Below are positions 3,220 to 30,361 of a stretch of 31,788 nt of DNA, piece after piece. Source of the stretch: a virus; IMG/VR virus record IMGVR_UViG_3300020219_000049, positions 1-31,788 of that record, one strand, 5' to 3'. The stretch's first letter is position 1, and every line of letters begins with the position of its first letter. The translations under genes were made by a program, and so were the position numbers. The notes below the pieces were generated by a model, which worked only from the letters and a program-made list of their open reading frames with translations, ran no database searches and was not told where the DNA came from.

Positions 3220-3687
3220 GTGGTTATTGAAATTAAACGTGGTCCATGCTCAAGCTGCCCTTATCGTAAAGACGTTCCGAGTGGCGTGTGGGAGGCAGAA
3301 GAGTACGACAAGCTGTCTGCGTATGACGGCGACATCATGTACCAACCAGCACGGTGGTTCATGTGCCACAACCAGGACAACAGTCTGTGCCGAGGGTGGC
3401 TCGATTGCCACGGTGAAGAATTGTTGGGCGTCAGGCTTGCGCTCGCAAAGGGTGAGTTGGATATAGATGAATACAAGAAGGCCATGGCGGAAGATCCACT
3501 GGTTCCTGTATTTCAGAGTGGGGCTGCCGCTGCCAAGCACGGCAAGAAGAAAGTAAAGAAGCCGACTACCGAAGCGCAGAAGCAGGTTGCTAAAATCTTA
3601 GAGAATCGCAGAAAGAACGCAGCGATTCGGGCTAAGTTGAAGATCTTAGAGACTCGCAGAAAAGAACTGGAAGGGCGTACGACATGA
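3220..3687 (+). CDS. DUF6283-like cysteine-rich phage protein
   Basis: A 155-residue protein starting with GTG directly after the previous stop. The N-terminal 65 residues match the small phage family I know as DUF6283: CSSCPYRKDVPSGVWEAEEY, an aspartate-rich YDG, then FMCH and CRGWLDCHG, which together could coordinate zinc. The C-terminal 60 residues are Lys/Arg/Ala-rich and helical (KKKVKKPTTEAQKQVAK), suited to nucleic-acid binding or a coiled coil. Function is unknown. The last 4 nt overlap an ATG at 3684 in frame with the following gene. Confidence 0.7.
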   Translation: MVIEIKRGPCSSCPYRKDVPSGVWEAEEYDKLSAYDGDIMYQPARWFMCHNQDNSLCRGWLDCHGEELLGVRLALAKGELDIDEYKKAMAEDPLVPVFQSGAAAAKHGKKKVKKPTTEAQKQVAKILENRRKNAAIRAKLKILETRRKELEGRTT

Positions 3688-3718
3688 CCATCCACCCTGA
3701 AAGCCTTGACGATATTTC

Positions 3719-3745
3719 AGCAATCGAACGAATGAACACAGAGGG
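3719..3745 (+). repeat. isolated partial copy of the CRISPR repeat
   Basis: These 27 nt match the 3' three quarters of the 36-nt repeat of the 7572-8115 array with one mismatch (A at 3740 where the repeat has T). The match starts at AGCAATCGAACG and ends at GAGGG. A Shine-Dalgarno sequence and ATG follow after 13 nt, the same spacing as after the repeat of the module at 5162-5335. In both places the interval contains GGA and TGCAAT. No scaffold precedes this copy. Confidence 0.75.
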
Positions 3746-3758
3746 AGGAAATGCAATC

Positions 3759-4094
3759 ATGGGAATGAATTTATCTGTATATGTCGGGCCATATTTTATC
3801 ATTGCCAAGGAAAGTTGTTTTCGATGGATGGATTGGGAAAACGTATTGTGCGACGGGCGAGGTGAAGCTGGAGTTGACGAATCAGATTTGATACTAATTC
3901 CTAACCGGAAGCTGGATGGCGTCGAGCGACCAATGCACATCGACGGCGAGCAAGGCACGATCCAGATTAACCCAGCAATGATAGTTAAGGAGACAGCGGC
4001 ATTCGTTCGACTAGCCGATGAAGTCATCCGGCATTGCGACGACAGGCTCATTGAAATTAGGGAAGCGTGGGGCGTCGTTCCGTGTTGGTCTTAG
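3759..4094 (+). CDS. hypothetical phage protein (MNLSVYVGPY type)
   Basis: The product from ATG 3759 has 111 residues and begins MGMNLSVYVGPYFII, a pattern I associate with small phage proteins of unknown function. GGGAGGAA at 3743-3750 lies 8 nt before this ATG, which favours it. An alternative in-frame start at 3684 overlaps the previous stop (ATGA) and would add 25 residues encoded through the partial CRISPR repeat. Cysteines are present (SCFRW, CDGRG, HCDD) but no clear zinc site. The repeat-like leader at 3719-3745 makes its regulation interesting. Confidence 0.6.
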   Translation: MGMNLSVYVGPYFIIAKESCFRWMDWENVLCDGRGEAGVDESDLILIPNRKLDGVERPMHIDGEQGTIQINPAMIVKETAAFVRLADEVIRHCDDRLIEIREAWGVVPCWS

Positions 4095-4112: not shown

Positions 4113-4319
4113 ATGAGCGAAAGCAAAGACACGACAAATGATTGTCAGTCGCGCGCGAGATCGCCCGACGAAATAGCATTGTCAATACAGGTTTTGAATC
4201 ATGAACTTGCACTCGGAAGTGCGATGCACGTTGTCGATATGCTTGTTGGCAATCCGTACTTCAAGGATCGTCGCGAAGAACTAATCAACACGATTGCTCA
4301 AGTGATTTCTCTTGCATAA
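4113..4319 (+). CDS. hypothetical protein, 68 aa
   Basis: ATG 4113 follows GAGAGGAAG at about 4100-4108, so I prefer it over a TTG at 4098 in the same frame. The product begins MSESKDTTNDCQSRARSPDE and is helical further on, with GSAMHVVDMLVGNPYF and an amphipathic C-terminus. It is the last gene of the small-gene run; a non-coding block follows. Function unknown. Confidence 0.55.
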   Translation: MSESKDTTNDCQSRARSPDEIALSIQVLNHELALGSAMHVVDMLVGNPYFKDRREELINTIAQVISLA

Positions 4320-4532
4320 AACCGTAAACAACGTAAACGGTTCTATTTCCTACTTCAACGAGACCCTAGTGGGCTACTCTCGGTAGGCTTTAATTCCCGG
4401 TCAAGCACCGGTATTTGGTTTCTAATGTTATACGCAAACAACTCTACGCCGTCAATCGCTTACGCTGTTTACGTTTTAATCAAACTGTTACTCACTATCG
4501 AATGTCAGGGAATAGGTAAAAAACGACCTTCG
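4320..4532 (+). other. non-coding block with dyads and GTAAAC/GTTTAC motifs
   Basis: No convincing gene. AACCGT (4320-4325) and ACGGTT (4337-4342) form a dyad that encloses two direct GTAAAC motifs (4324-4329, 4333-4338). AACGTAAAC at 4330-4338 is an exact inverted copy of GTTTACGTT at 4467-4475. Between them are a CCGGT/ACCGG hairpin near 4400-4415 and a weak stem-loop near 4372-4391. The block may terminate the upstream operon and carry regulator, replication or recombination sites. The sequence does not say which. Confidence 0.4.
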
Positions 4533-5161: not shown

Positions 5162-5335
5162 TCCTAGACGTTTCGCAAGATACGTCGAGAGTTGGCCACC
5201 TCCAGGCCGACAGTGAGCATCTAGGTAACAATGAGAGTATCAAGGTGCTCGCAGAAGGCCGAAAACAGGCGGGGATAAACAGGGTAAATCCTGACGGCCC
5301 CCGCAGTGAACAATCGAACGAATGATCACTGAGGG
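5162..5335 (+). ncRNA. guide-RNA-like scaffold plus one CRISPR repeat (copy A)
   Basis: Nearly identical to 7423-7607 and 30177-30361 from TCCTAGACG onward. It ends in a full 36-nt repeat at 5300-5335 that carries two variants: A at 5310 and T at 5326. The first hairpin (CTAGACGT with ACGTCGAG) has one mismatched pair here. GCGGGG in the scaffold can pair with CCCCGC at the start of the repeat. DNA directly after the repeat (from 5336) would be the guide if this is transcribed as a single RNA. That DNA is the ribosome-binding site and start of the gene at 5349. No promoter specific to this copy is evident, so readthrough from 4533 is likely. Confidence 0.65.
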
Positions 5336-5980: not shown

Positions 5981-6008
5981 TTGACATACTCACTAAGAGT
6001 TGTAGAAT
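5981..6008 (+). promoter_or_regulatory. strong sigma70-type promoter of the Cas12-like locus
   Basis: Consensus TTGACA at 5981-5986, a 16-nt spacer, and TAGAAT at 6003-6008. A start near 6015 leads into a short RNA with a terminator at 6063-6099 and then the Cas12-like gene at 6113. This is among the best promoter matches in the window. Confidence 0.7.
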
Positions 6009-6014
6009 ACCAGC

Positions 6015-6099
6015 ACTGTGACGGCAGTATAAAAAACCAATCGCGGGCAACCGCGCTGTACTCCCTGCTCGTCACCGTCAATGATGAGCAGGGTTTTTT
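6015..6099 (+). ncRNA. short terminated RNA or attenuator leader upstream of the Cas12-like gene
   Basis: From the promoter at 5981 a transcript of about 85 nt would end at the terminator at 6063-6099. It contains a perfect CGCGG-GCAA-CCGCG hairpin at 6042-6055 with a GNRA-type loop. TGACGG at 6019-6024 can pair with CCGTCA at 6075-6080 inside the terminator loop, so alternative folds are possible. It could be an attenuator for the nuclease gene or a separate small RNA. A CACTG at 6014-6018 could pair with the repeat's CAGTG, but that is too short to prove a tracrRNA. Confidence 0.45.
6063..6099 (+). terminator. rho-independent terminator between promoter and Cas12-like gene
   Basis: Perfect 8-bp stem CCCTGCTC (6063-6070) with GAGCAGGG (6086-6093), a 15-nt loop and a run of six T (6094-6099). 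It stands between the promoter at 5981 and ATG 6113, so expression of the nuclease probably depends on readthrough. Confidence 0.75.
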
Positions 6100-6112: not shown

Positions 6113-7597
6113 ATGGCAATGCGCACTGTTTCGATTCCCATCGCTGAGTGCATTTCGAACACCAAAACCGAGCTTTACGCGGCATTGCAAAAATCACTTG
6201 ACGCCTCTCGCGTGGTCGCTAATATCGCTGCTACAGAATGCTTGCGGCAAGATAATTTGCAGATGGAAAAGTGCCCTAAAATCTACACTTACCCGGCGTG
6301 CAAAGGCTTATTCGAAGGTGTCTCATTTATGGTCTCTTCGGTTTGCCGCGCTGTGGAATCGGCGTATAAGAAAAAGCGGTGGAGAATGATCCGAGGCATG
6401 GAAGCAAGCCGTAGCTATCGGTCGCAGCCTTGGCCGATGCTCAATAATAAATCATGCTCTACATTCACAATCGATGATGAAGGAGAGTTTCTGACGTGTC
6501 GCATTAAGCTACTGGACGATTGGTTCGTAGTCCGGTTAGCCGGTGGAGTTAGCCATCGCGATCAAATTAAAGGCTTGCGAAGGGCGATTGCAAGTGATGG
6601 AGTCTGCGATTCTAAGTTGTGGATCGATCGAAAAAACAAGGCGATTATTGGCTTTTCTTGCGACGTAGCTGTTGCCGAGAACAAGCAGAAGCCTGATTGT
6701 GAAGTGCGGATATCTAGCGGAGTTGATTACCTACTTGGACTTACGCAAGATCGCGTTCAATCGCCATGGGTTGTCAACGCAGATGAGGTCATTTTATGGA
6801 AGGCTGAATCCACTAGGCGCAACCAACGCTATAGGCAGTCGCGAAAGCAAGGCGTCGATAGGCGACGACTCAAGGAAGAATCTAAAGCATTTGCGGATAA
6901 GATGGCAAGAAGGTTGGCGACAAAGATACACACATCGACCAGTCAAATTGTTGACAAGGCTATTAAGATTGGAGCGGCGAGAGTCAAGCTAGACTTAACA
7001 ATCAAAAGCTTCGCAACTGAATTTCCCTGGTATGATTTGGCTAACAAGATAAAATACAAATGCGAGTCTGCTGGAATCGAAGTCATTGACGCTACGCAAA
7101 CAGTCGCTCAACCGGACTGCGAAAAGCCGCATGTTTATTTTGCTTACGACTTGCATTCGCATCGGGTAAAAATAGGAAGAACTCAAGGCGGAAAAGATCG
7201 TCTAAAAGCATTCTGGACTATGCAGCCAGATTTGATTTTGCTTGCGGTTGACAATCGTGCGCAATCGAGGCTGGTTGCGATGGAAAAACACTATCACGCA
7301 TATTTCGACAATCATCGCGTGGTAAATCGAGACAAATCAGGTCGCGAGTTATTCGCGGCTGATCCTGTATTGCAATGGTTGCGAGCGGTTGGGTGGCTCG
7401 GAAATGCCGGGAACCTCTCGCAGATCATGCAAGTCCTAGACGTGTCGCAAGATACGTCTAGAGTTGGCCACCTCCAGGCCGACAGTGAGCATCTAGGTAA
7501 CAATGAGAGTATCAAGGTGCTCGCAGAAGGCCGAAAACAGGCGGGGATAAACAGGGTAAATCCTGACGGCCCCCGCAGTGAGCAATCGAACGAATGA
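6113..7597 (+). CDS. Cas12/TnpB-like RNA-guided protein with C-terminal T5orf172 (GIY-YIG) domain
   Basis: A 494-residue protein from ATG 6113; no clear Shine-Dalgarno. Residues 1-110 are helical and end in SYRSQPWP, like the N-terminal lobe of small Cas12/TnpB proteins. Residues 116-200 form a beta-rich wedge-like region. D205 in SGVDYLLGL sits where the RuvC-I Asp is expected. A basic bridge-helix-like segment follows (about 231-270), then STSQIVDKAIKIGAARVKLD, where D294 replaces the usual RuvC-II Glu. ESAGIEVIDATQTVAQ (318-333) matches the strand before a TnpB zinc ribbon. The ribbon and RuvC-III are absent. Instead residues 339-425 look like T5orf172: HVYFAYD, VKIGRT, DRLKAF, EKHYHAYF and SGRELFAA. 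The last 54 codons overlap the RNA scaffold, and the stop lies in the first repeat. The RuvC site is probably inactive, with GIY-YIG providing cutting or binding. The fold call is by eye. Confidence 0.7.
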   Translation: MAMRTVSIPIAECISNTKTELYAALQKSLDASRVVANIAATECLRQDNLQMEKCPKIYTYPACKGLFEGVSFMVSSVCRAVESAYKKKRWRMIRGMEASRSYRSQPWPMLNNKSCSTFTIDDEGEFLTCRIKLLDDWFVVRLAGGVSHRDQIKGLRRAIASDGVCDSKLWIDRKNKAIIGFSCDVAVAENKQKPDCEVRISSGVDYLLGLTQDRVQSPWVVNADEVILWKAESTRRNQRYRQSRKQGVDRRRLKEESKAFADKMARRLATKIHTSTSQIVDKAIKIGAARVKLDLTIKSFATEFPWYDLANKIKYKCESAGIEVIDATQTVAQPDCEKPHVYFAYDLHSHRVKIGRTQGGKDRLKAFWTMQPDLILLAVDNRAQSRLVAMEKHYHAYFDNHRVVNRDKSGRELFAADPVLQWLRAVGWLGNAGNLSQIMQVLDVSQDTSRVGHLQADSEHLGNNESIKVLAEGRKQAGINRVNPDGPRSEQSNE

Positions 7598-7607
7598 TCA
7601 CTGAGGG
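7423..7607 (+). ncRNA. guide-RNA scaffold plus first CRISPR repeat (copy B, array leader)
   Basis: Structured DNA overlapping the 3' end of the Cas12-like gene and running directly into the array. Hairpin 1 is CTAGACGT (7436-7443) with ACGTCTAG (7454-7461), 8 bp perfect. Hairpin 2 is TTGGCC (7464-7469) with GGCCGA (7477-7482). GCGGGG (7541-7546) pairs with CCCCGC (7571-7576) at the start of the repeat and encloses a CAGG/CCTG stem. CAGTGAGCA at 7483-7491 also occurs in the repeat. By analogy with omega RNA and tracrRNA-crRNA duplexes, this is probably the scaffold that the nuclease binds. Confidence 0.7.
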
Positions 7608-8115
7608 GCTAACGGAAAGCCGTTTTGTGTACAAGACTTGCTGACCCGCAGTGAGCAATCGAACGAATGAACACTGAGGGCTGCCAAACTTGTCCATTGG
7701 CCAATGTGACTACTGAACCCCGCAGTGAGCAATCGAACGAATGAACACTGAGGGGAGACCGTAGTTTAGCGACCGTCCCTCAGTGTTCATCCCGCAGTGA
7801 GCAATCGAACGAATGAACACTGAGGGGTGGTGCCAAATCTTTGGGGATGTGTTGTTGGGCGTCCCCGCAGTGAGCAATCGAACGAATGAACACTGAGGGA
7901 CCCAGGCTGCGTTTGTTTCGCGCGGCATGGATTTCCCCGCAGTGAGCAATCGAACGAATGAACACTGAGGGCGTAAGTTGCCAAAGCTTGTCCGATCTAA
8001 GCGTTGCACCCGCAGTGAGCAATCGAACGAATGAACACTGAGGGGAGCAGACCTGACACTTTCCTTTTACCCCCGCCTTCCCGCAGTGAGCAATCGAACG
8101 AATGAACACTGAGGG
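7572..8115 (+). CRISPR. CRISPR array, 8 repeats of 36 nt and 7 spacers
   Basis: Repeats start at 7572, 7645, 7719, 7791, 7864, 7936, 8009 and 8080, each 36 nt. Spacers are 37, 38, 36, 37, 36, 37 and 35 nt and differ from one another. All repeats are identical except the first, which has T instead of A at 7598. The ends CCCGCAGTG and CACTGAGGG form a 9-bp stem with one mismatch. The first repeat is continuous with scaffold B. Spacer 3 (7755-7790) ends in a 14-nt inverted copy of the repeat's 3' end. There is no cas1, cas2 or cas4 nearby. The array ends 25 nt before the gene at 8141. Confidence 0.95.
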
Positions 8116-8389: not shown

Positions 8390-8404
8390 AGTCAGAGAAC
8401 GATG

Positions 8405-8962
8405 TTACGGGTCCAAATGATACTTAATAATCCGCAGAGATTCTTCGATAGTTGCCTGAATGGCGCGGCGACTGAAGCGAGTCTTGAACGCAGAGCCATG
8501 CCTCATGATAAAAGTATGGTTAGTTTGCTCGGTAGTCTTTTTGATGGATGATCCGCACTTGATGTAGAGAGTGGTAACCAGGACTTGGAAGTCCGTTAGT
8601 CCCGATCCGGTTATGAGAGACGTCTCACCATCTAGATCGCTGGCTACTGAGCGATAGTCGATTACCTCGGTGGTGGCTTCCGGCATTGGCGACAGCCGCT
8701 TAATGATCCTCGGAATCCGTCGACACTTGCATTTGACAAACGTGGTGAGCTCGCCAGCTTCGGGATCGTAACTTTCGATGTCACTAATGATCTCAACCAA
8801 GATCTCTGAGTAAATGTCCTCTCGATCAACTCCGTTTGGAATGTTGGATCTCCCTATCGTTGCGAGAATCCATGGGCGAATGGCTTGAAGTATCGGTGTG
8901 ATTGCTTCTCTGTCACCGTTTGTATATTGTCTGACAAGGGCAGTGACGGTATGCTTGTCCAT
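8405..8962 (-). CDS. RNA polymerase sigma-70-like factor (ECF type)
   Basis: Encodes 185 residues from the ATG at 8962 (a TTG at 8986 could extend it by 8). Residues about 35-90 match sigma region 2: VDREDIYSEILVEIISDIES, YDPEAGELTTFVKCKCRRIP. This resembles the D-L-x-Q-E-x-F pattern and the F-D-P-x-x-G-x-F-x-x-W block of ECF factors. The C-terminal part (SIKKTTEQTNHTFIMRHGSA) may be a divergent region 4 HTH. A phage sigma-like factor could redirect host polymerase to phage promoters, or it could be a recombinase-linked regulator. It is divergent from the recombinase at 9003, with a 40-nt gap. Confidence 0.65.
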   Translation of the reverse strand: MDKHTVTALVRQYTNGDREAITPILQAIRPWILATIGRSNIPNGVDREDIYSEILVEIISDIESYDPEAGELTTFVKCKCRRIPRIIKRLSPMPEATTEVIDYRSVASDLDGETSLITGSGLTDFQVLVTTLYIKCGSSIKKTTEQTNHTFIMRHGSAFKTRFSRRAIQATIEESLRIIKYHLDP

Positions 8963-9002
8963 AGGGCGTGATGCTAGTTGAATCAATTCGAGGGGCTTCT
9001 CA

Positions 9003-10481
9003 ATGGCTTGGTACGTTTACGTTAGGATGAGTCATCGATCTTCGGCGTATTCTGGAATCAGTGAGAATTCACAGATCCTGGCATGCATGGAGTACATTTC
9101 GTCCTGCAATGTAGGCGAGCAGATAGGCAAGCACAAGTTCCCAAATGATGTTCCTGATGGCGTCTTTGTTGATCGTGGCAAGAGTGGCTGGTCCAGGAGC
9201 ATTGATGCTCGTGGCGCTGGCGTCGAGCTACTGAGAGTTCTGAAGCCGGGTGATCATATTGTATTCTACAATGTCGAGCGAGCTTTCCGCCACACTATCA
9301 ACTGCTTAACTTGGGTTGGCCGATGGCTTGAACAAGGGATTACTCCTCACTTTGCTACTGAGAAGATTGACTTCAGCACCGCCGGGGGCCGGTTTGTTGG
9401 AAGCGTTATAGCAGCCGCAGCACAATACTACAGCGACTTGATAAGCGAGAGAACGAAGGAGGCGCTAGCGATCCGCCGCAGTCGCCTTGGGCTCACGGTT
9501 AAGACAAAGCTGGTGAAGAATGCACCAAGGATATGCAGCATAAAACAGCACGCGCCACCAGCATCGGAACGAGAACTCGATACTGATATTCCAAAGGCGC
9601 TCATTTACAATCGAGTCTCCCATCTCGATCAGAGCATAAGTGGATTGAGCATGGATGCACAGAGAGAAGAGAACCTTAAGCTTGCAAGCAGGATTGGAAT
9701 CCCAGATGCCGCCGTGTTTGAGGATGAATCGATCTCTGCATTCTCAAAGCCATTTTCTTCGCGGCCTGGAGCTATTCGATTACTCACTGACTTGAAGCGA
9801 GGCGATCACGTCATCATCTATCGCGTTGATCGAGCGTTCAGAAATATACGAGACGCTTGCCAGATCGAGAAGCAACTGAGGGATCTAGGAGTAACGCTGC
9901 ACATTACTCGTGAGGGCATAGACACAAGTAACGAATATGGCCGGATGTTCTTTCAGATCCTGTCCATGTTTGCTGAACTTGAGTCTTCCATGAAGTCCCA
10001 GCGGCAAAAGGAGAATGCCAAAGCTCGCCGACATCGAGGAGATTTTCTTGGTAATGTGCCACGGCATCTCAAGGTGATCGGCAGCGGAAGTAATCGGGTA
10101 GTTGTTCACGACTATGACGCAATCGTCGACTGCTTCACCGTTGCGCTGTTGATTGACGCAGGGTTCCCTATCGAACAAGCTGCAAGAATTCTTGATACTG
10201 ACAAAGCTCTGTCATCGAGCTATCTCCGTAAGGGCCGGTTCTATAGAAATAACATACGCCCAGCGATTGCAACACTTCCAAAGGCCGTCTGCCAAGTTCT
10301 GATGGAGAGGGCAATTTGTCAGATCAAGTATCCGAATGAACGGACGTGGCGGTTGAACAATGTGGAAAAGTACTCGTATCCGGTTCGCGATATAGAGGAT
10401 CGTTTAGCCGCAGCCGATATCTCGCCAGAGCTTCGAGACTTGTTACCCAGCCATCTTCAGTTTGCCATCGCTCAAGCTTAA
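9003..10481 (+). CDS. serine recombinase with two tandem catalytic domains
   Basis: A 492-residue protein. Domain 1 (about 1-160): YVYVRMS with Ser10 as nucleophile and Arg8, FVDRGKSGWSRS, the GDHIVFYNVERAFRH strand-helix (R93, R96), and LISERTKEA at the catalytic helix E. Domain 2 (about 198-345): ALIYNRVSHLDQSISGLS with Ser206 and Arg204, FEDESISAFSKPF, GDHVIIYRVDRAFRN, and FAELESSMKSQRQKEN. Residues 345-492 are a helical C-terminal region. Normal resolvases or integrases have one such domain. It could be a fused heterodimer that performs integration, inversion or excision. The 3' end overlaps an antisense HTH-like ORF. Confidence 0.85.
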   Translation: MAWYVYVRMSHRSSAYSGISENSQILACMEYISSCNVGEQIGKHKFPNDVPDGVFVDRGKSGWSRSIDARGAGVELLRVLKPGDHIVFYNVERAFRHTINCLTWVGRWLEQGITPHFATEKIDFSTAGGRFVGSVIAAAAQYYSDLISERTKEALAIRRSRLGLTVKTKLVKNAPRICSIKQHAPPASERELDTDIPKALIYNRVSHLDQSISGLSMDAQREENLKLASRIGIPDAAVFEDESISAFSKPFSSRPGAIRLLTDLKRGDHVIIYRVDRAFRNIRDACQIEKQLRDLGVTLHITREGIDTSNEYGRMFFQILSMFAELESSMKSQRQKENAKARRHRGDFLGNVPRHLKVIGSGSNRVVVHDYDAIVDCFTVALLIDAGFPIEQAARILDTDKALSSSYLRKGRFYRNNIRPAIATLPKAVCQVLMERAICQIKYPNERTWRLNNVEKYSYPVRDIEDRLAAADISPELRDLLPSHLQFAIAQA

Positions 10482-10587
10482 CGCGGTGGCCAAACCTGTT
10501 GCGTCTTCCAACGGTGCAAAGTCTTTGCACCCTCTTGTATTTCATGCCTAGGACTTCACCCAATCGAAGATTTCCATCTGCATCCAT
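10324..10587 (-). CDS. small HTH/excisionase-like protein, antisense overlap
   Basis: An 87-residue ORF from the ATG at 10587. The segment LRLGEVLGMKYKRVQRLCTV could be a helix-turn-helix. It is followed by NRFGHRVKLERWQTEDGWVT and SLEALARYRLRL, a pattern similar to short excisionase-like or DUF1580-type proteins (R-G-x-R-L-x-x...TS-EAL-RF). Residues after about 36 are encoded opposite the end of the recombinase gene. Either could be real; an RDF-like partner next to a serine recombinase would make sense. Composition in the antisense part is constrained by the other gene, so confidence is limited. Confidence 0.4.
   Translation of the reverse strand: MDADGNLRLGEVLGMKYKRVQRLCTVGRRNRFGHRVKLERWQTEDGWVTSLEALARYRLRLNDPLYREPDTSTFPHCSTATSVHSDT
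10513..10531. promoter_or_regulatory. 19-bp perfect palindrome near recombinase 3' end
   Basis: GGTGCAAAG and CTTTGCACC flank a single central T. The site lies 32 nt after the recombinase stop, inside the antisense HTH-like ORF. A dimeric regulator or recombinase site is possible; as RNA, the loop would be too tight for a normal terminator. Confidence 0.45.
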
Positions 10588-10764
10588 GTTGCTATTTTTC
10601 TACCCCATAAGTGGTATGACGCGACACGATGTCGTACCAGGCCCCCGAAAGAGTGGGTCACAGAGTACTCCGTGACGACACAGTGTCGCTGTGCCAAAAG
10701 TGTCCACATCGCCCAGTTTTGCTCCATCTTGTTCCAATTTACACCAGTTTCGGTAAGGAGGCAA
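10588..10764. other. non-coding region dense in GACAC/GTGTC dyads
   Basis: No convincing gene. It contains CGACA/TGTCG around 10622-10636, GTCAC/GTGAC at about 10659-10677, and GACAC/GTGTC and CACAG/CTGTG around 10676-10697. This cluster lies between the tandem recombinase and the head genes. It could hold a recombination site, an operator set, or a promoter region for the virion operon. The region ends at GGTAAGGAGG (10753-10760 area). Confidence 0.4.
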
Positions 10765-10881
10765 ATGCTCAGTGGAATAATAACCATAGAAGGTTGCACC
10801 CACCTCCAATGGCGATTTATTCCAAATGGCAAAAACTCTACAAAACATGATCGAAGAAGGGCAGGCGTCACAAGCGACTGA
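10765..10881 (+). CDS. possible short leader ORF overlapping the scaffold gene
   Basis: ATG 10765 has a near-perfect GGTAAGGAGG just upstream (10752-10760). The frame stays open for 38 codons, through the start of the scaffold gene (10826) in another frame. The product begins MLSGIITIEGCTHLQWRFIP. The scaffold ATG itself has no good Shine-Dalgarno, so this ORF may couple translation into it. It has no recognisable domain and may be non-functional. Confidence 0.3.
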   Translation: MLSGIITIEGCTHLQWRFIPNGKNSTKHDRRRAGVTSD

Positions 10882-11989
10882 TCCCGCATCGATACCGGCT
10901 GTACCGGCACCTGTCATACCAGTTGCAGAAGTCCCTGTTCCCGCCGCTATCCCAGAAGTAGCGGCAGTTCCAGCAGAACCGCTGGCAGTTGAGACAGAGA
11001 CATCCGAAGTCAAGCCTGCTGCCGATGAAGCGAAGGATGCAAAGTCCTGGCTTCGCGATTTTCTTGAGAAGCACAATAAGCACACCGAAGGAATTCCAGA
11101 TTCCGAGCTTGAGGCTTATGCAGCGCGTAAGCTCTTTGAAACACCAGCGCCAGTTGCTGCCGTCGTTCAACAGCCAGCATTTGTAAGCACTCAAGTCGCT
11201 CCGGTAGCCGAAGTGCAGACGCCATCGGACGATAAGAAGTCTCGCAAGGTTGCCAAGCTTCAGTACGATCAAGCGCTCGCTACGATGGTCAGCTTTGATG
11301 ACGATGGTAGGGCTGTACCGCGTCCTGAGTTTGGCGGTTCTGCCATTGAAGCAGCATCCAAAGTCAATCAGTACTCGGAAGCACGCCGTAAGCGCGTTGA
11401 AGATCTCGTTGACGATCCGATTGGTTTTCTCCAAGACGACATGCTTGATATTGTTCGCGAAGAAATGCGCGGGCTCATCGGCAAGGAGTTCGAAAACTTC
11501 AAGTCGTCTCAGCAGACAGAGTATCAACGATTTTCAGCCGAGCGAGCACAAGACGCAGAGAGATCTTCCGTTACGGAGCTACTCACTTTAAACAAATCAA
11601 AGCTCTATATCGTCGGAAAAGACGGGCAGCCAGCGCTGTCTCTCGATACCAATTTGCCCATTCTTTCACCGTATGGATCGGCAGTTGATGAAGAGCTGAA
11701 GGAACTTGAGCAGATCAATCCTAACGCGCAGCAGTCGTTACTGATTGCTAAGGCCATCAGGACTGTTGACAAGATTTTCTCGCAACCTGAGAAGCTGACG
11801 CCAGAAACAGTCGCTGCAAAGAAACAGGCTTTTCTTGAAAAAGATAAGCGCCATGTAGTTCCGGTTTCTCCGGACAGACCAGAGGCGAGCCTCGCTGACG
11901 CTCTAGCCAATCATGCGCCAATGACTCTCTCGGAGATGATCAAGCGCAACCCAAACCTAGTAGGAAATCCAGCCCTAGCCGAATTATAA
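10826..11989 (+). CDS. putative capsid scaffolding protein
   Basis: A 387-residue protein directly before the major capsid gene. Residues 20-75 are Ala/Pro/Val/Glu-rich low complexity. The middle holds charged helices (FLQDDMLDIVREEMRGLIGK, then FENFKSSQQTEYQRFSAERA) that suit a coiled-coil scaffold. The C-terminus is short and basic/hydrophobic (LSEMIKRNPNLVGNPALAEL). Scaffolding proteins commonly have this layout and position, and organise procapsid assembly before exit or cleavage. The call rests on composition and context rather than sequence identity. No Shine-Dalgarno is seen at ATG 10826. Confidence 0.6.
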   Translation: MAKTLQNMIEEGQASQATDPASIPAVPAPVIPVAEVPVPAAIPEVAAVPAEPLAVETETSEVKPAADEAKDAKSWLRDFLEKHNKHTEGIPDSELEAYAARKLFETPAPVAAVVQQPAFVSTQVAPVAEVQTPSDDKKSRKVAKLQYDQALATMVSFDDDGRAVPRPEFGGSAIEAASKVNQYSEARRKRVEDLVDDPIGFLQDDMLDIVREEMRGLIGKEFENFKSSQQTEYQRFSAERAQDAERSSVTELLTLNKSKLYIVGKDGQPALSLDTNLPILSPYGSAVDEELKELEQINPNAQQSLLIAKAIRTVDKIFSQPEKLTPETVAAKKQAFLEKDKRHVVPVSPDRPEASLADALANHAPMTLSEMIKRNPNLVGNPALAEL

Positions 11990-12017
11990 GTTAGGCTTAC
12001 CCAGGAGTTGACGTAGC

Positions 12018-13118
12018 ATGTCGATCGAATTCACAATCCAGGCCATTACGAACACGGTCCCAACGTACTTGAATCAGGCTATCGACCTGACGTTGAGGAA
12101 GCGTTTCGTACTTTCTTACCTCAAGAAAGCTGGTCGTATTCTGACCAACACGGCTGGTCCAAGCATTACTTGGAACGTCACGTACAAGCAGCCTGACGTA
12201 CGTAGTACGAACGGAAACCGAGCTAGCTTCTCCATGGCGAACACCAAGAAGCAATTGAGTCTTGGATTTGCTCAGTTGGAATCAACCAACGCGATCGACC
12301 GCAACACGTTGATGGTCAACAGCAGCCCTAGTCAGATCGTTAATCTTGCTGAAGAGATGACTCGCGAGTGCGTGGCTGCGATCACTGACACGATCAGCGA
12401 TCAGATTTACTACGACAACACTAATGATCCAGCTTCATTGGCTGGTTTCAAGACGTTGCTCAACGGCGATGCAGGAGCGGCAACCGATTTATGTGCCGTC
12501 CCAGCCGCTGGTTCAACCTACGGTGGTTTGAGCATGGTGCTCGGTGCGTTCGGTGGTAACTGGAGCGCTGAACTCCCGACCCCATTGTGCAGCAGTCTTA
12601 CCAATGACTGGCCAGAAGGTTCCGGATCTGCGCAGTACGATTTCATGGCCCCTAAGTTCTTTAACTACAACGGCGATTGGACTGGCGGTGGTGTGAACAA
12701 CTGGCGTTCAACTTGCGAAATGATCATGCGCCGCGCTGCGGTTTCGATCAACGCGTTGGGTGGTGAGGGAGCTGCACCGAGCATTCACCTTCTTCCAACC
12801 GGCATGTACACGACGTTCCAGGATTCGTGCCAGGACCGTGAGCGATTGCAACCGTCCGACTATGCGAAGAGCATGGGCTTCCCGGACATGATGACTTACG
12901 CTGGAGCGCTGTTGGCATACGATTACTCGTGTCCAGCCGCAACTGGCTATGCCTTCAACCCTGCCGAGATGGCGCTGTGTTCGATGGCCAAAGACTTGCT
13001 TTACACTGACGGTCCAACTTGGAGCATCGTTGAGCAAGCTTACCTGTTCTTGGTTGGATTCACTGGCAACATTCGATTCAATCCAAAATACATCGCTACT
13101 TACGGCGCATTCAGCTAA
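12018..13118 (+). CDS. major capsid protein
   Basis: A 366-residue protein with AGGAGTTG at 12002-12009 before ATG 12018. It begins MSIEFTIQAITNTVPTYLNQ and continues with a typical capsid N-arm then strand pattern (ITWNVTYKQPDV, FSMANTKKQLSLGFAQLEST). A domain with NLAEEMTRECVAAITDTISD resembles the HK97 spine helix. The C-terminus has LYTDGPTWSIVEQAYLFLVG, then FTGNIRFNPKYIATYGAF. The cysteines and aromatic loops are specific to this lineage. Position (after scaffold, before decoration protein) supports the call; fold assignment to HK97 is inference. Confidence 0.75.
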   Translation: MSIEFTIQAITNTVPTYLNQAIDLTLRKRFVLSYLKKAGRILTNTAGPSITWNVTYKQPDVRSTNGNRASFSMANTKKQLSLGFAQLESTNAIDRNTLMVNSSPSQIVNLAEEMTRECVAAITDTISDQIYYDNTNDPASLAGFKTLLNGDAGAATDLCAVPAAGSTYGGLSMVLGAFGGNWSAELPTPLCSSLTNDWPEGSGSAQYDFMAPKFFNYNGDWTGGGVNNWRSTCEMIMRRAAVSINALGGEGAAPSIHLLPTGMYTTFQDSCQDRERLQPSDYAKSMGFPDMMTYAGALLAYDYSCPAATGYAFNPAEMALCSMAKDLLYTDGPTWSIVEQAYLFLVGFTGNIRFNPKYIATYGAFS

Positions 13119-13179
13119 CCCTCACGGGATAGCGTTTGTTGGTTGACTTAAACGACACATTTTCCGGAGATATTCTGAT

Positions 13180-13677
13180 ATGACAATGCCAGCAGTTTCT
13201 AAGTATCAACTCGGTGAAAAGCCAGCTAGTGTTCCATCGTTAGAGCTTGGAACGCGAGCGTCTTTCGCTGATCTGAACTACTCGGCGTCTACGCTCACCA
13301 AGCCGACGTTGAGCGGTGGCATGATTGAAGCAGTTCTGGTAAAGCACCTCGGTGCTACGGCTCTTGTCCCTGGAACATGGGCCAAGTGGTCTGTTCCGTT
13401 TGCGTCGACATCAGCTTTGGCTGGCGCGTCAGATGCTCCCGCTGGTCTTGTTGATCCGTACTTGATCGCCAACGTAGCGCAGAACGAATTCTTCTGGTTG
13501 ATTATCAGTGGACCATCGAAGATTCTTAGCAGTGGCACCTTGGCTGCAAATGCCGTTGTCATTTCCCAAGCTGCTGGTCAAGCCGCTGCGGGTACTGAGG
13601 ACGTGCATTATGGTCGGATGATGGAATCGGCGACTTCAGGACTGACCAAGCGAATTTACGTTACCTGCCGAAAATAA
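13180..13677 (+). CDS. putative capsid decoration/head-stabilising protein
   Basis: A 165-residue, Ala/Ser/Val-rich, low-charge protein directly after the capsid gene; CCGGAG at 13164-13169 lies upstream of ATG 13180. It has GGMIEAVLVKHLGATALVPG, FWLIISGPSKILSSGTLAAN and a C-terminal VHYGRMMESATSGLTKRIYV, giving a beta-rich impression. In many phages this slot holds a head-decoration protein. No named family is recognised. Confidence 0.55.
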   Translation: MTMPAVSKYQLGEKPASVPSLELGTRASFADLNYSASTLTKPTLSGGMIEAVLVKHLGATALVPGTWAKWSVPFASTSALAGASDAPAGLVDPYLIANVAQNEFFWLIISGPSKILSSGTLAANAVVISQAAGQAAAGTEDVHYGRMMESATSGLTKRIYVTCRK

Positions 13678-13717
13678 CATTTTTACCGGCGATTGCTGGT
13701 ACTGATTGGAGAATACC

Positions 13718-13903
13718 TTGGATCACAAGTTACCACCATTTGGATCACCGAAGATTCCTGACCGATGCGTGGCGGATTCCGCCATGTCGACGGTGAAGAT
13801 GAACGTCATTAGTTCGCAGAAGGCCGAGATGAATCCAAAGGCAATGCGAGAAATCCCTAAGTCATCGGACTTCTCGGCAACCCATCCTGTAAAGCCTGCA
13901 TAG
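13718..13903 (+). CDS. small hypothetical protein, TTG start
   Basis: TTG 13718 has GGAG at 13708-13711, six nt upstream. The frame encodes 61 residues (LDHKLPPFGSPKIPDRCVAD and on, ending SSDFSATHPVKPA) and stops before a strong terminator. An ORF on the opposite strand (13723-13914) reads as partly hydrophobic and cannot be excluded. I prefer the + strand because spacing and orientation match the operon. Function unknown. Confidence 0.45.
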   Translation: MDHKLPPFGSPKIPDRCVADSAMSTVKMNVISSQKAEMNPKAMREIPKSSDFSATHPVKPA

Positions 13904-13945
13904 GTCATCGGCATTCGGCATGGCGGGTGCGCTCAAGTCGAATTG

Positions 13946-13981
13946 GGTGGGCAATACCTTAGTGTTGCCCACCTTTTTTTT
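13946..13981 (+). terminator. strong rho-independent terminator after the capsid cluster
   Basis: Perfect 9-bp stem GGTGGGCAA (13946-13954) and TTGCCCACC (13965-13973) with a 10-nt loop, then eight T (13974-13981). It separates scaffold-capsid-decoration genes from the next block starting at 14006, and would let capsid genes be expressed at a different level. Confidence 0.9.
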
Positions 13982-14005
13982 GGTTAATTCAGAACGGAAC
14001 ATTTC

Positions 14006-14332
14006 ATGGCTGTGAAAAAAGATGCAATCAATTGTACGACAACCGGCCAGAGTGTTGACTGGTTCTTGTTAGGGATGGGTGACCACTATCTGTATTTCAA
14101 GTGGTCTGGTTCTCCGGGTGCAGCTAGCCCAAAGGTTCGCAAGCCTGGGACTACAACATGGTTTCCCATTGAGAATGCCAGTAGTGGTGTTGCGTACTCA
14201 GCTACAGCAAACAGAGCGATTGTTATTCCTGGAGGTCAAGAGGTAAGCGTTGATCTCGTTACTGCAACATCCAATCTTGAGATGACTTTCAGTAGAGCGG
14301 GCATTTACAGACAAGTCTTGGATGGAAAATGA
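14006..14332 (+). CDS. hypothetical small beta-rich protein
   Basis: A 108-residue protein between the terminator and the terminase block. It starts MAVKKDAINCTTTGQSVDWF and contains YLYFKWSGSPGAASPKVRKP, IVIPGGQEVSVDLV and a C-terminal SRAGIYRQVLDGK, a small beta-sandwich-like pattern. Its end overlaps the next start (ATGA). It may be a minor virion component; no family recognised. Confidence 0.55.
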   Translation: MAVKKDAINCTTTGQSVDWFLLGMGDHYLYFKWSGSPGAASPKVRKPGTTTWFPIENASSGVAYSATANRAIVIPGGQEVSVDLVTATSNLEMTFSRAGIYRQVLDGK

Positions 14333-15009
14333 TCGATCTGGCGGACTATAAACGCTGCTTGGGGTGCATTACGGTACTTGCTATCGATGAATTGAGAGAC
14401 GGAAGATGCCCCCTGTGTCATGGTAAATGGTTAGATAATCGGGAGTCTATATTGGCAAAGGCAGACGAAAGAGCACTCTCAAAAGCTGCACGAGAAATCC
14501 TGCTTGGCGTATCTCAGGCCGGGAGGGGAGAGCCTCAGTCTCCAGAGTTCATCTCAGCCGCCATGGCTAAGCTCGGTGGCGTCCATCAGTTTGCAGGTAT
14601 GGTTGTCGACGACTACCACAGATCGCGAGGGTGCTCACCAGACGGTCAGCCTCTTCAGGGTGTAAAGACTTCTCCACAGATGTCGTTCAAGATCGCAGAG
14701 CTGCTCGCTCGCATCATGCTTAAAAATGATGAACGAGAATCATTGGAGGTAGGGTCTCTGAGTGACAAGGATTTGGTTGATACACTACGCGCTTTGATAA
14801 CAGATCTCGTCCAGAACGATCCAGCCTATCGAGAGCTGATCGTCATGGAGTGTTTGCGGATTCAGCCAGATCTTATTCACAAGGCAATGAACGCTGCGGG
14901 AACACCAGTCGTTGATGGAACTACGGCACCTGTTGAGAAGCCAAATCCGATCGAATTGAGTGAAGCTGGATTGGATGAGATCGACGCGGGCGAGGACGAC
15001 GATGATTAA
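14329..15009 (+). CDS. putative small terminase subunit or terminase-associated protein
   Basis: A 226-residue protein just upstream of and overlapping the large terminase gene. The N-terminus has CLGC (about 10-13) and CPLC (about 27-30), a likely zinc-binding pair. The middle is helical (ALSKAAREILLGVSQAG, MSFKIAELLARIMLKNDERE), and the C-terminus is acidic (EIDAGEDDDD). Position suggests a small-terminase-like or packaging accessory role, but I see no definite terminase HTH. Confidence 0.5.
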   Translation: MIDLADYKRCLGCITVLAIDELRDGRCPLCHGKWLDNRESILAKADERALSKAAREILLGVSQAGRGEPQSPEFISAAMAKLGGVHQFAGMVVDDYHRSRGCSPDGQPLQGVKTSPQMSFKIAELLARIMLKNDERESLEVGSLSDKDLVDTLRALITDLVQNDPAYRELIVMECLRIQPDLIHKAMNAAGTPVVDGTTAPVEKPNPIELSEAGLDEIDAGEDDDD

Positions 15010-16735
15010 AATCAATGTTCGCAAACCAACAGCTTCTGAAGGCCGAGCGATCATTGAGTACGCTAGCCGTCAGAATATGTCCGTGTCTCTCTTTCGGCCA
15101 CAAGTGCATCAAGATCCGTTCTTTCTGAATTGGGCACGACAGAGGGTTTTGCGTGGCGGTACTCGCGCTGGTAAAAGCCTATGCGCAGGTGAGGCGTTCG
15201 CAGCAAAAGCAATGGACATTGATATAACCCTTGAAGACGGGACGGTAGTTCCTGGTCGCCAGCCGTGGCAGAAGGGGCGATGCTTGATTATGTGGGTCAT
15301 TGGATACGACTCGCGTCACATCGGAGAAACGATTTACCGAATCCTTTTCAAGAACGATATGTTCAAGATTATCAAGGACGAAGTTACTGGTCGGTATCGA
15401 ACGTATCGGGATTGGGTGCCTGAAGACAAGGCACGCGAGGGCGAGAATCGGCCAGCAGCGCCATTGATTCCAAAGCGATACATCAAGCCAGGATCGTGGG
15501 ATTGGGAGAACAAAAAGAACAACGAGTTCAAGCGCGTAACGATCATTGATCCGGTTACAAAGAAGGAACTCGCACACATCTACGCGTACAGTTCAAAGGC
15601 AGATGCAAAGGCTGGCGATCCGGTCGACATGATCTGGATTGATGAGCACATTGATAACGCAAAGCACTACGCAGAGTGGAGATCCAGGCTTGCAGATAAA
15701 CGAGGCGATTTGATCTGGTCAAGCTGGCCATCGACTCAGAATGATGCGCTCATGAAACTCTCCAGGGAGGCAGCCAAGGAAGCCAGTAAGGCTAAGCCTC
15801 TTGTAAGAGAGATCGTCATAGCGGCGAGTGCAAACAAGGCTCTTTCTGACGAGGCTCGGCAAGAAGCGTACGACATGATCACGAGCGAGGAAGAACGGCG
15901 CTCTAGAGATCGCGGTGAGTACGTTACCGATCTTCTCAGGATGTATCCCTTGTTCGATCAGTTCATTCACCAAGCGGTTCAAGAGGGTGATCCGGACGAA
16001 GTCAGCAAGATCTTGAGGCAGCGCAACGGTGTGCCTCCTGCGGACTGGACTATTGAACTGGTTCTAGATCCAGGTAGCGCACATCCAGGTATTCTATTCG
16101 GAGCGATTCCACCTTCTTACATAACGGGACCAGGAAGGGCGTTTGTGGTTTACGATGAGTTGTCACCAGAAAGACACGATGCAACGCAGCTCGCCGAGAA
16201 GCTGGTTAAGAAACTTGGAGGACGAAAGCCCCATAGGTTTATAATCGACTGGAATGCTGGTCGGCAAAAATCGATGGGCCACGAGATTACAGTTGAGCAG
16301 AACTACCTAAAGGCGTTCAAGGCGGCGCACGTTAAGCTCGATGGTAGCGATCTGATATTCACTAAAGGCTCGAACAATGTTGGCGGTAGAATTGGTGTTG
16401 TCCAGGAGTGGACGCATCTTGATCCCGAGAGAGGGCTACCAACACTGAGGATTGTTCGTGAGAAATGCCCTATGCTATGCCAGCAGTTGTTCGATTACAA
16501 AAAGGCGTGCTCTCAGAAGGACGTGATTGAAGAGCGCCCGGCAGATGGCCAGCAGATTGACTTGGCGGTTGCATTGGAATACTGGGCAGCTAGTTCGCCA
16601 GCGTATGTTGTGCCGAAGTTCAATAGGCTTAATAATGATCCGAGTGGCGGATGGTTGTGGTTCCAGGAAACTGTACTGAAGAAACAGAAGTCAACCAAGC
16701 GAGAGAGCATCCAGCTTGGACCTCAGTACAACTAA
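15002..16735 (+). CDS. terminase large subunit
   Basis: A 577-residue protein from ATG 15002, overlapping the previous stop. Walker A is GGTRAGKS at residues 52-59. Walker B is DMIWIDEHID at about residues 209-218, followed by a coupling segment with ADKRGDLIWSSWPS. The C-terminal half shows RNase H-like nuclease strands: ELVLDPGSAHPGILFGAI and later HRFIIDWNAGRQ, whose aspartates likely bind metal. It packages DNA into procapsids and cuts concatemers, together with the portal at 17139. An upstream in-frame extension to 14960 is open but has no ATG of merit. Confidence 0.85.
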   Translation: MIKINVRKPTASEGRAIIEYASRQNMSVSLFRPQVHQDPFFLNWARQRVLRGGTRAGKSLCAGEAFAAKAMDIDITLEDGTVVPGRQPWQKGRCLIMWVIGYDSRHIGETIYRILFKNDMFKIIKDEVTGRYRTYRDWVPEDKAREGENRPAAPLIPKRYIKPGSWDWENKKNNEFKRVTIIDPVTKKELAHIYAYSSKADAKAGDPVDMIWIDEHIDNAKHYAEWRSRLADKRGDLIWSSWPSTQNDALMKLSREAAKEASKAKPLVREIVIAASANKALSDEARQEAYDMITSEEERRSRDRGEYVTDLLRMYPLFDQFIHQAVQEGDPDEVSKILRQRNGVPPADWTIELVLDPGSAHPGILFGAIPPSYITGPGRAFVVYDELSPERHDATQLAEKLVKKLGGRKPHRFIIDWNAGRQKSMGHEITVEQNYLKAFKAAHVKLDGSDLIFTKGSNNVGGRIGVVQEWTHLDPERGLPTLRIVREKCPMLCQQLFDYKKACSQKDVIEERPADGQQIDLAVALEYWAASSPAYVVPKFNRLNNDPSGGWLWFQETVLKKQKSTKRESIQLGPQYN

Positions 16736-16755
16736 TTTAGTGGAGGAATTTAGTC

Positions 16756-17133: not shown

Positions 17134-17138
17134 ACCCC

Positions 17139-19855: not shown

Positions 19856-19859
19856 CTCA

Positions 19860-21442: not shown

Positions 21443-21452
21443 GGATAAAAAT

Positions 21453-22400: not shown

Positions 22401-22417
22401 TCACCTTCAGAAACCCA

Positions 22418-24127: not shown

Positions 24128-24136
24128 GCTAAGTTC

Positions 24137-24715: not shown

Positions 24716-24716
24716 T

Positions 24717-28916: not shown

Positions 28917-28947
28917 ACGCTTAGTTTCTTCAACTAGATGCGTAGGG

Positions 28948-28977
28948 TTGTGTTTGTCTGACGGTAGGTGGTATGAT
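28948..28977 (+). promoter_or_regulatory. promoter giving a near-leaderless transcript
   Basis: TTGTGT at 28948-28953, an 18-nt spacer, and TATGAT at 28972-28977. The predicted start falls at about 28984, next to ATG 28985. The upstream ATG at 28973 lies inside the -10 element, so 28985 is the likely translation start. Confidence 0.55.
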
Positions 28978-29311: not shown

Positions 29312-30178
29312 ATGCGTCAATTTCTCTCGATGCTTATTTTGGGACTTCTGGCCGGAAGTTCGCACGGTCAGCTTTTATCGCGGATGTTTGGATCTCCAAA
29401 GTATTCATCGAACTGCCCCGGTGGAGTTTGTCCAACCTCGAACAACTGGTCAAACAACGACGGATTGTCTCGGCGCGATCACCTGGAGCACGTTCACGGA
29501 ACAAGCACAAGTGGTATGACCGAATCGCAGGTCAGAGCTGAGCAAAACCGCTATCACAATAAGTATGGTGCTGGTCATCCAGTGCAGCAGCCGGCACAGT
29601 ACGCGGCGGTTCAATCGGCTCCTCGGCCATACATCCAGAATGCACAACAGCCTGTGGCATCTGGTGGCTCTGGTGGCTCCAGTGGCAATCTAGCGGTCGG
29701 GATGGTTTATCGCGGCGAAATTGTGGCGTCGATTGGAAGCCCGATAGTCGAATCTATGCAGTCCGATTCAAATCTGATGGCTGGTCCAATCCGCGAAAGA
29801 ATCGGCAGCAATCGACAATTCCGTAAGGTGCTCTTGGAAGCAGCCAGCAAAGCGGTATCCGATGGCACGCTGTCAGAGGCACGGTACAACGCACTTCGGT
29901 TGCAGAGTCTTAGTCCTCGCAAGCTAGAGGAAATCAAATCGCAGGTCGGCTCATTCGCGGCCGAGGAAGGTGTGCTGAGTTCTGCGGTCGGCATCGATTG
30001 GAGCAAGATCGACTGGGAAAAGTTGATGACCTTCATCGTCAAGTGGCTGCCTGTGATTATCAATCTGTTCGGCAATTCCGATCAGGTCGGCATGATGGCT
30101 CCGTCACCAATGCCACTGGTTCAGACTCGCGAATTTTATCAGACTCGCGAATTCTACACGGGTTTAATTGCCATTTGA
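29312..30178 (+). CDS. exported protein with signal peptide, Gly/Ser linker and hydrophobic C-terminus
   Basis: A 288-residue protein. ATG 29312 follows AAGGA at 29301-29305. The N-terminus MRQFLSMLILGLLAGSSHGQ is a Sec-type signal peptide. Residues 27-70 have CPGGVCPTSNN and RRDHLEHVHGTST; a GSGGSSGN linker near 120 follows. The C-terminal part includes LMTFIVKWLPVIINLFGN, one hydrophobic segment, and ends with a repeated QTREFY. The stop codon at 30176-30178 overlaps the first bases of guide module C. A surface, lysis or adsorption role is possible; no family recognised. Confidence 0.6.
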   Translation: MRQFLSMLILGLLAGSSHGQLLSRMFGSPKYSSNCPGGVCPTSNNWSNNDGLSRRDHLEHVHGTSTSGMTESQVRAEQNRYHNKYGAGHPVQQPAQYAAVQSAPRPYIQNAQQPVASGGSGGSSGNLAVGMVYRGEIVASIGSPIVESMQSDSNLMAGPIRERIGSNRQFRKVLLEAASKAVSDGTLSEARYNALRLQSLSPRKLEEIKSQVGSFAAEEGVLSSAVGIDWSKIDWEKLMTFIVKWLPVIINLFGNSDQVGMMAPSPMPLVQTREFYQTREFYTGLIAI

Positions 30179-30361
30179 TCATGCAAGTCCTAGACGTGTC
30201 GCAAGATACGTCTAGAGTTGGCCACCTCCAGGCCGACAGCGAGCATCTAGGTAACAATGAGAGTATCAAGGTGCTCGCAGAAGGCCGAAAACAGGCGGGG
30301 ATAAATAGGGTAAATCCTGACGGCCCCCGCAGTGAGCAATCGAACGAATGAACACTGAGGG
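30177..30361 (+). ncRNA. guide-RNA-like scaffold plus one CRISPR repeat (copy C)
   Basis: Same sequence as copy B (7423-7607) from GATCATGCAAG onward except for a few changes; the full repeat is 30326-30361 with the array-type A at base 27. The 8-bp first hairpin and the GCGGGG/CCCCGC pairing are kept. The candidate guide starts at 30362 (ACCACCGG...). The region to 30483 then holds a CTGGAG/CTCCAG hairpin (30414-30435), a short GAAG/CTTC stem and a T run near 30452, possibly an RNA 3' end, and AAGGAG before the next ATG. It stands between two exported-protein genes. Confidence 0.65.

What the first reader, a model, noticed from the sequence alone, without database searches (positions are those of the whole stretch)
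6113..8115. Phage CRISPR locus built on a Cas12/TnpB-like protein whose RuvC-III is replaced by a GIY-YIG-type domain
Seen: an ORF with TnpB/Cas12-type features (D205 at the RuvC-I position, the bridge-helix-like basic segment, the GI-x-V-...TQTVAQ strand), followed not by zinc ribbon and RuvC-III but by a T5orf172 pattern (VKIGRT, R363, E391). An array of eight 36-nt repeats sits directly downstream. Known: T5orf172 belongs to the GIY-YIG superfamily; type V effectors normally cut with RuvC. Inference: the RuvC site is inactive (Asp at the Glu position, no RuvC-III) and the GIY-YIG-type domain supplies DNA cleavage or binding, a combination I do not recall as described.
Basis: partly seen in the sequence, partly recalled or inferred. 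Interest (0 to 1): 0.96.

Follow-up and report, generated by a model that had tools for sequence, protein, structure and literature searches.

The report
Phage Cas12f-like protein with swapped nuclease
A phage carries a miniature CRISPR system whose effector has lost all its usual RuvC cutting residues and has, in place of the last part of RuvC, a different nuclease domain (T5orf172, GIY-YIG type), which would make it an RNA-guided DNA cutter of a kind not described in the papers I could search.

Summary
ORF 6113-7597 (494 aa) is a Cas12f1/TnpB relative over residues 3-336 (PADLOC Cas12f E=4e-15; AsCas12f structures are the top Foldseek hits, E=4.5e-17). Against AsCas12f1, D225 falls on Ser201, E324 on a deletion, and the zinc ribbon plus RuvC-III (D401) is missing: PF07282 matches only its first 23 of 60 positions. 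The next domain, residues 341-424, is T5orf172 (above Pfam's cut-off), with the GIY-YIG residues Y342, G355, R363 and E391 kept. The ORF runs into a strongly structured 139-nt scaffold and eight 36-nt repeats. Two further scaffold-plus-repeat units lie at 5162-5335 and 30177-30361. A sister phage, 99.9% identical over 14.7 kb, has a partly different spacer set, so the array changes quickly. No Cas1 was found. No other fusion of this kind turned up. Best reading: a type V-F-like, phage-borne CRISPR effector whose dead RuvC core does the targeting and whose T5orf172 domain cuts. Anatomy is well supported; cleavage, targets and guide processing are inferred. It is a singleton from one metagenomic contig.

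The parts
6113..7597 (+). effector ORF, 494 aa (P0002); ATG 6113, stop inside first CRISPR repeat
6113..7120 (+). Cas12f1/TnpB-like core, residues 1-336 (WED/REC/RuvC-I, bridge helix, RuvC-II)
   Evidence: PADLOC Cas12f E=4.1e-15 over residues 3-336; TnpB NF040570 E=3.4e-12; six-frame search of the window with PDLC01699 E=2.2e-16 at 6116-7120; Foldseek AsCas12f E=4.5e-17
6713..6715 (+). Ser201 codon at the position of the RuvC-I catalytic Asp (AsCas12f1 D225)
   Evidence: profile HMM of 21 Cas12f-like relatives and MAFFT --add
6974..7000 (+). RuvC-II strand (residues 288-296, AARVKL-DLT) with the catalytic Glu (AsCas12f1 E324) deleted
7028..7096 (+). truncated Cas12f1-like target-nucleic-acid-binding (TNB) domain: only positions 1-23 of 60 match; zinc ribbon and RuvC-III absent
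7133..7387 (+). T5orf172 (GIY-YIG superfamily) domain in the place of zinc ribbon + RuvC-III
   Evidence: PF10544 21.2 bits over the 20-bit cut-off, profile positions 3-96 of 101, E=9.6e-6; isolated domain 21.8 bits
7199..7201 (+). codon of R363, predicted GIY-YIG catalytic Arg
7283..7285 (+). codon of E391, predicted GIY-YIG metal-binding Glu
   Evidence: equivalent Glu needed in Odn (PMC8263062)
7433..7571 (+). structured scaffold (tracrRNA/omegaRNA-like), overlaps the 3' end of the ORF
   Evidence: fold z=-8.0 for 7423-7644, z=-6.7 for 7430-7579
7572..8115 (+). CRISPR array, eight 36-nt palindromic repeats, seven spacers of 35-38 nt
   Evidence: repeat fold z=-5.0
5162..5335 (+). solitary scaffold+repeat unit, directly upstream of the Shine-Dalgarno and ATG (5340) of a small ORF
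30177..30361 (+). solitary scaffold+repeat unit in a non-coding stretch, followed by a hairpin; also in the sister phage

Best explanation
A compact, phage-borne type V CRISPR effector derived from a Cas12f1-like protein. The Cas12f core binds a scaffold (tracrRNA-like) plus crRNA and forms an R-loop at DNA matching the spacer, but its RuvC site is dead. The C-terminal T5orf172 (GIY-YIG) domain, held where RuvC-III and the zinc ribbon used to be, nicks or cuts the bound DNA. The palindromic repeat supplies its own anti-repeat: the 5' half of the first repeat, joined to the scaffold, pairs with the 3' half, so scaffold+repeat+spacer is a natural single guide, and the same RNA could act in trans for downstream crRNAs. 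The phage probably uses it against competing mobile elements. Shown: domain architecture, loss of RuvC residues, retention of GIY-YIG residues, a sequence predicted to be a strongly structured RNA, array, fast spacer turnover. Inferred: RNA binding, R-loop, cleavage, guide processing, targets.
For: Cas12f similarity over residues 3-336 and AsCas12f as top structural hit. D225->S201, E324 deleted, D401 region absent. T5orf172 above cut-off directly after the truncation, with Y342, G355, R363, E391 kept. T5orf172 of phage ICP1 Odn is a proven nuclease that depends on the equivalent Glu, fused to a borrowed targeting domain (PMC8263062). Scaffold between gene and array as in AsCas12f1 and SpCas12f1 loci (PMC8548392), with z about -7 to -8. 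Sister phage 99.9% identical over 14.7 kb keeps S2, S3, S7 but has other spacers at S1 and S4-S6. Seven of ten nearest viral relatives tested also carry CRISPR-like arrays beside the gene.
Against: Singleton: no other Cas12f-T5orf172 fusion found. The sister contig begins inside the scaffold, so the fusion is seen in one contig only. The T5orf172 half has no confident model and Foldseek on it is not significant, though I-TevI is in the list at E about 2. No protospacer found, so targets and PAM are unknown. No Cas1.
Confidence: 0.55

Rival explanations
1. RNA-guided binder without cleavage: the dead Cas12f core blocks transcription or replication as Cas12m or TldR do, and T5orf172 only adds DNA binding.
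For: All three RuvC acids are lost, as in other inactivated type V effectors that silence targets (PMC12669027). One solitary unit sits in a gene's 5' region, reminiscent of regulatory guides such as phage-encoded TldR (PMC13418256).
Against: A pure binder would not need a nuclease domain with its Y, G, R and E residues kept. No guide matches a promoter in the window.
Confidence: 0.22
2. RNA-guided homing system: the solitary scaffold+repeat units are mobile guides whose 3' flank is the guide; the effector cuts phages lacking the unit at that flank and recombination copies the unit in, as GIY-YIG homing endonucleases and TnpB do.
For: Three near-identical units with sharp ends; T5orf172 is common in putative phage homing endonucleases (PMC10448857); no TnpA in the contig.
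Against: An array with turning-over spacers is not expected of homing. The 3' flank of the 30-kb unit folds into a hairpin. No empty site was seen.
Confidence: 0.13
3. The T5orf172 domain processes the guide transcript (pre-crRNA or the effector mRNA) rather than target DNA.
For: In TnpB the protein processes its own mRNA into guide RNA (PMC10278001, listed); with RuvC dead another site could be needed.
Against: The T5orf172 protein with tested activity is a DNA endonuclease.
Confidence: 0.05
4. Artefact or pseudogene: chimeric assembly, or a decaying effector that captured a homing endonuclease fragment.
For: Single contig; RuvC residues lost; sister contig does not cover the gene.
Against: Uninterrupted 494-codon frame, junction at a domain boundary, GIY-YIG residues intact, array still changing.
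Confidence: 0.05

Closest known systems
Cas12f1 (type V-F), e.g. AsCas12f1
   Same: N-terminal 336 residues align; scaffold between gene and array; compact effector; repeat-spacer array; the nearest phage relatives L018-L028 are of this kind
   Different: all three RuvC acids lost, zinc ribbon and RuvC-III replaced by T5orf172; about 20% identity only
TnpB with omegaRNA/reRNA
   Same: guide scaffold overlaps the 3' end of the gene; extra solitary scaffold copies like gene-less elements
   Different: has a true repeat-spacer array; no TnpA; scores better with Cas12f profiles than with TnpB profiles
Inactivated type V effectors (Cas12m, Cas12c) and TldR
   Same: RuvC catalytic residues lost; several are mobile-element or phage borne
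   Different: those carry no second nuclease domain as far as I know; here T5orf172 is fused
Odn (ICP1 Gp88), T5orf172 nuclease with borrowed RepA_N targeting domain
   Same: modular phage nuclease: T5orf172 plus a targeting domain
   Different: Odn targets through a protein-DNA contact; here targeting would be by guide RNA
TIGR-Tas
   Same: phage-borne guide array with modular nuclease domains (PMC12045711, listed)
   Different: different guide-binding protein and array type

Membership tests
Type V-F CRISPR (Cas12f1) | effector homologous to Cas12f over WED/REC/RuvC-I/II | tested here: met
Type V-F CRISPR (Cas12f1) | intact tripartite RuvC (AsCas12f1 D225, E324, D401) and zinc ribbon | tested here: not met
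   S201, deletion, domain absent:
Type V-F CRISPR (Cas12f1) | tracrRNA-like RNA between effector gene and array | tested here: met
   predicted strongly structured scaffold 7433-7571; expression not tested; anti-repeat role inferred from the repeat's palindrome
Type V-F CRISPR (Cas12f1) | CRISPR array with changing spacers | tested here: met
Type V-F CRISPR (Cas12f1) | RNA-guided binding or cleavage of DNA | not testable with these tools
   needs biochemistry
T5orf172 / GIY-YIG | Pfam PF10544 match above curated cut-off | tested here: met
   21.2 bits, cut-off 20, six-frame search of the window; isolated domain 21.8; full protein 19.4, just below
T5orf172 / GIY-YIG | GIY-YIG residues Y, G, R, E | tested here: met
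   Y342, G355, R363, E391 shared with the phage VSt472 endonuclease
T5orf172 / GIY-YIG | GIY-YIG fold | tested here: inconclusive
   predicted strand-strand-helix-strand-helix order fits, but pLDDT about 50 and no significant Foldseek hit
TnpB (IS200/IS605) | RuvC-active nuclease within a transposon with TnpA or element ends | tested here: not met
   RuvC residues lost; no Y1_Tnp in the contig
Autonomous CRISPR adaptation | Cas1 in the locus | tested here: not met
   (31.8-kb contig, may be incomplete)

The most novel reading that the evidence does not exclude
The first class 2 CRISPR effector in which the RuvC site is dead and a GIY-YIG-superfamily nuclease does the RNA-guided DNA cutting: a natural nuclease swap on a Cas12 chassis.
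Probability: 0.5. Interest if true: 0.95.

Novelty: new variant of a known kind. Interest (0 to 1): 0.86.

Why it matters
One paper states that class 2 effectors all share a RuvC-like nuclease domain (PMC8548392, abstract), and the 2025 CRISPR classification, whose main text does not mention GIY-YIG, describes RuvC-inactivated type V effectors as binders or transposon recruits (PMC12669027). A Cas12 chassis that lost RuvC and gained another nuclease would show that the cutting module is exchangeable in nature. It would also join two phage weapons, CRISPR and T5orf172 nucleases, that replace each other in ICP1. GIY-YIG cutting would differ from RuvC (possibly nicking, possibly no collateral single-strand cutting), which is directly testable with one small protein and one RNA.

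Tried and rejected
Hidden RuvC-III elsewhere in the contig: PF07282 gives only the truncated match. Relatives of the fusion: none by P0002 in viral or genome contigs, phages or plasmids; profile-guided scans gave only Cas12f-like proteins with the zinc-ribbon/RuvC-III region in place; a scan of 299 genomes of one phylum gave nothing at E<=1e-5, but missed even the known Cas12f of its centre genome at that threshold, so it is uninformative. T5orf172 relatives by a two-sequence alignment: none confirmed. Related phages by major head protein or integrase: only the sister contig. Spacer targets: none within the window or the held parts of the sister contig, in phages or plasmids, or (S1 only) in viral contigs. 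Anti-repeat elsewhere in the scaffold: duplex energy only weakly better than shuffles (4 and 7 of 200 as good). Rfam: nothing credible. Isolated T5orf172 model: low confidence.

Full report
Observation. The window is a virus record of 31,788 bases with a major head protein, portal protein and large serine recombinase, so a phage, probably temperate (inference from the recombinase). ORF 6113-7597 encodes 494 aa; its stop codon lies inside the first of eight 36-nt repeats at 7572-8115, with 35-38 nt spacers. A 32-nt core of the repeat occurs ten times in the window with up to 3 mismatches, against none expected in shuffles.

N-terminal part. Residues 3-336 match PADLOC Cas12f (E=4.1e-15) and residues 37-336 match Cas12u3 (4e-14); NCBIfam guided_TnpB gives 3.4e-12 over 67-326 and PHROG 506 transposase 7.8e-10 over 19-327. 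The best PDB sequences by phmmer are Cas12f chains, mostly AsCas12f (E about 1e-5). An AlphaFold model built with 21 relatives has pLDDT of roughly 70-90 over most of the core, and its top Foldseek hits are AsCas12f-sgRNA-DNA complexes (best E=4.5e-17). Global TM-scores are modest (0.36-0.45 for the best hits), as expected with a low-confidence second half.

RuvC is dead. A profile HMM of 21 Cas12f-like relatives aligns to residues 56-325 (E=1e-17 as a single-sequence comparison). L030 encodes a 422-aa protein whose RuvC motifs fall at D225, E324 and D401. D225 is the residue mutated to make dead AsCas12f1 (PMC8548392), and the L030 protein contains the printed stretch of the AsCas12f1 chain 7wju. 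In alignments to it, D225 falls on S201, E324 on a deletion (VKL-DLT against IQMEDLT), and D401 has no real counterpart. PF07282, the domain that continues into the zinc ribbon and RuvC-III, matches only its positions 1-23 of 60, ending at 7096. The near-gapless alignment instead places D205 four residues after that position, just before the next strand (DSSP strands 193-201 and 206-212). The alignment given to AlphaFold held a similar register, so the model is not independent proof of it.

T5orf172. Thirty-six bases after that truncation begins the T5orf172 match 7133-7387 (positions 3-96 of 101; 21.2 bits against a cut-off of 20). In the full-length protein it scores 19.4 bits, just under the cut-off; the isolated domain scores 21.8, with MUG113 as second match. 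Aligned with the C-terminus of the Salmonella phage VSt472 endonuclease, the shared positions include VYF (Y342), KIG (G355), R363 and E391. Predicted secondary structure of this half follows the order strand-strand-helix-strand-helix in both models, but confidence is low (mean pLDDT 51.8) and Foldseek on it has no significant hit; two I-TevI catalytic-domain entries and the UPF0213 protein BH0048 appear at E 2.2-2.7.

RNA. The ORF's last 55 codons overlap a scaffold whose predicted fold is far more stable than shuffles (z=-8.0 for 7423-7644; z=-6.7 for 7430-7579). The repeat alone folds into a hairpin (z=-5.0). In characterised Cas12f1 loci a long tracrRNA is encoded between gene and array (PMC8548392), the same place. 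I infer that the 5' half of the first repeat, attached to the scaffold, is the anti-repeat. Two more scaffold+repeat units occur, at 5162-5335 and 30177-30361. The first ends directly before a ribosome-binding site and ATG, the second before a hairpin.

Array activity. One sister contig, IMGVR_UViG_3300020201_000285 (23,399 bases), is 99.88% identical over window 8394-23115 and 99.26% over 23833-30461. Its array keeps S2, S3 and S7, has another first spacer, and has one new spacer in place of S4-S6. Spacers thus change much faster than the rest of the genome. How is open: no Cas1 is present; host adaptation proteins or recombination are possible. The contig begins inside the scaffold, so it does not show the effector.

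Relatives. Scans with profiles of Cas12f gave 11 viral and 10 genomic loci. All keep the zinc-ribbon/RuvC-III region, nearly all with the catalytic Asp. Of the ten viral loci tested for repeats, seven show CRISPR-like arrays near the gene. None has T5orf172. So the nearest relatives are phage and Firmicutes Cas12f systems, at about 20% identity, and the fusion is so far unique in what I could search.

Function. Three reasons favour cleavage by T5orf172: RuvC residues are lost while GIY-YIG residues stay; the domain sits where the RuvC-III part was; and in ICP1 a T5orf172 protein (Odn) cuts DNA in vitro in a manner that needs the corresponding Glu, with targeting by a borrowed DNA-binding domain (PMC8263062). 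T5orf172 genes are also common putative homing endonucleases in those phages (PMC10448857). A binder without cleavage, as for Cas12m (PMC12669027), is the main rival. RNA-guided homing of the solitary units is a further one. Targets are unknown: no spacer matched anything searched. Spacer S3 ends in the reverse complement of the repeat's 3' part, so its source may have been another repeat unit (inference).

Literature. In 5.39 million open papers none holds both T5orf172 and Cas12, and one holds GIY-YIG, TnpB and RuvC, in an unrelated sense. Most subscription papers and preprints were not searched, so this is not proof of novelty.

Verdict. Anatomy confirmed: a RuvC-dead Cas12f-like effector with a T5orf172 domain in the RuvC-III position, probability about 0.9. 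RNA-guided cutting by T5orf172, probability about 0.55.

Noticed in passing
window 3719-3746: A solitary 3' part of the CRISPR repeat (27 of 28 bases) lies inside ORF 3684-4094, just before a Shine-Dalgarno and in-frame ATG. The ORF starting at 5322, at the end of the solitary unit, begins MITEGGGAIM, much like MNTEGGNAIM here; unexplained link between repeat and gene starts.
   Followed up: partly
window 4308-4487 (minus) and L011 741-920: A 180-bp element, 100% identical in the two places, with hairpins; the sister phage has it near window position 8394 where the window has an uninterrupted site. Looks like a gene-less mobile element (fold z=-2.9).
   Followed up: partly
window 5981-6008 and 6063-6099: A near-consensus sigma-70 promoter (11 of 12) followed by a terminator-like hairpin shortly before the effector ATG; possible attenuation, though the number of such sites equals chance.
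   Followed up: no
window 7755-7790 (spacer S3): The spacer ends in the reverse complement of the repeat's 3' part (20 bases, one mismatch to the last repeat plus flank); it may come from another repeat unit.
   Followed up: partly
window 7681-7718 (S2) and 30362-30401: Spacer S2 and the 3' flank of the 30-kb solitary unit share the 10-mer GCCAAACTTG; S4 and S6 hold similar stretches. Meaning unclear, could be chance.
   Followed up: no
L020 and L032, Cas12f-like ORFs: Two relatives may also be RuvC-impaired: L020 has KNYN where others have ADYN at RuvC-III, and L032 has GINFG where others have GIDLG at RuvC-I.
   Followed up: no
window 9003-10481: 492-aa serine recombinase with two resolvase-type stretches matched, next to the CRISPR locus.
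   Followed up: no
window 8405-8986 (minus): 193-aa ORF with a weak sigma-70 region 2 match, just downstream of the array.
   Followed up: no
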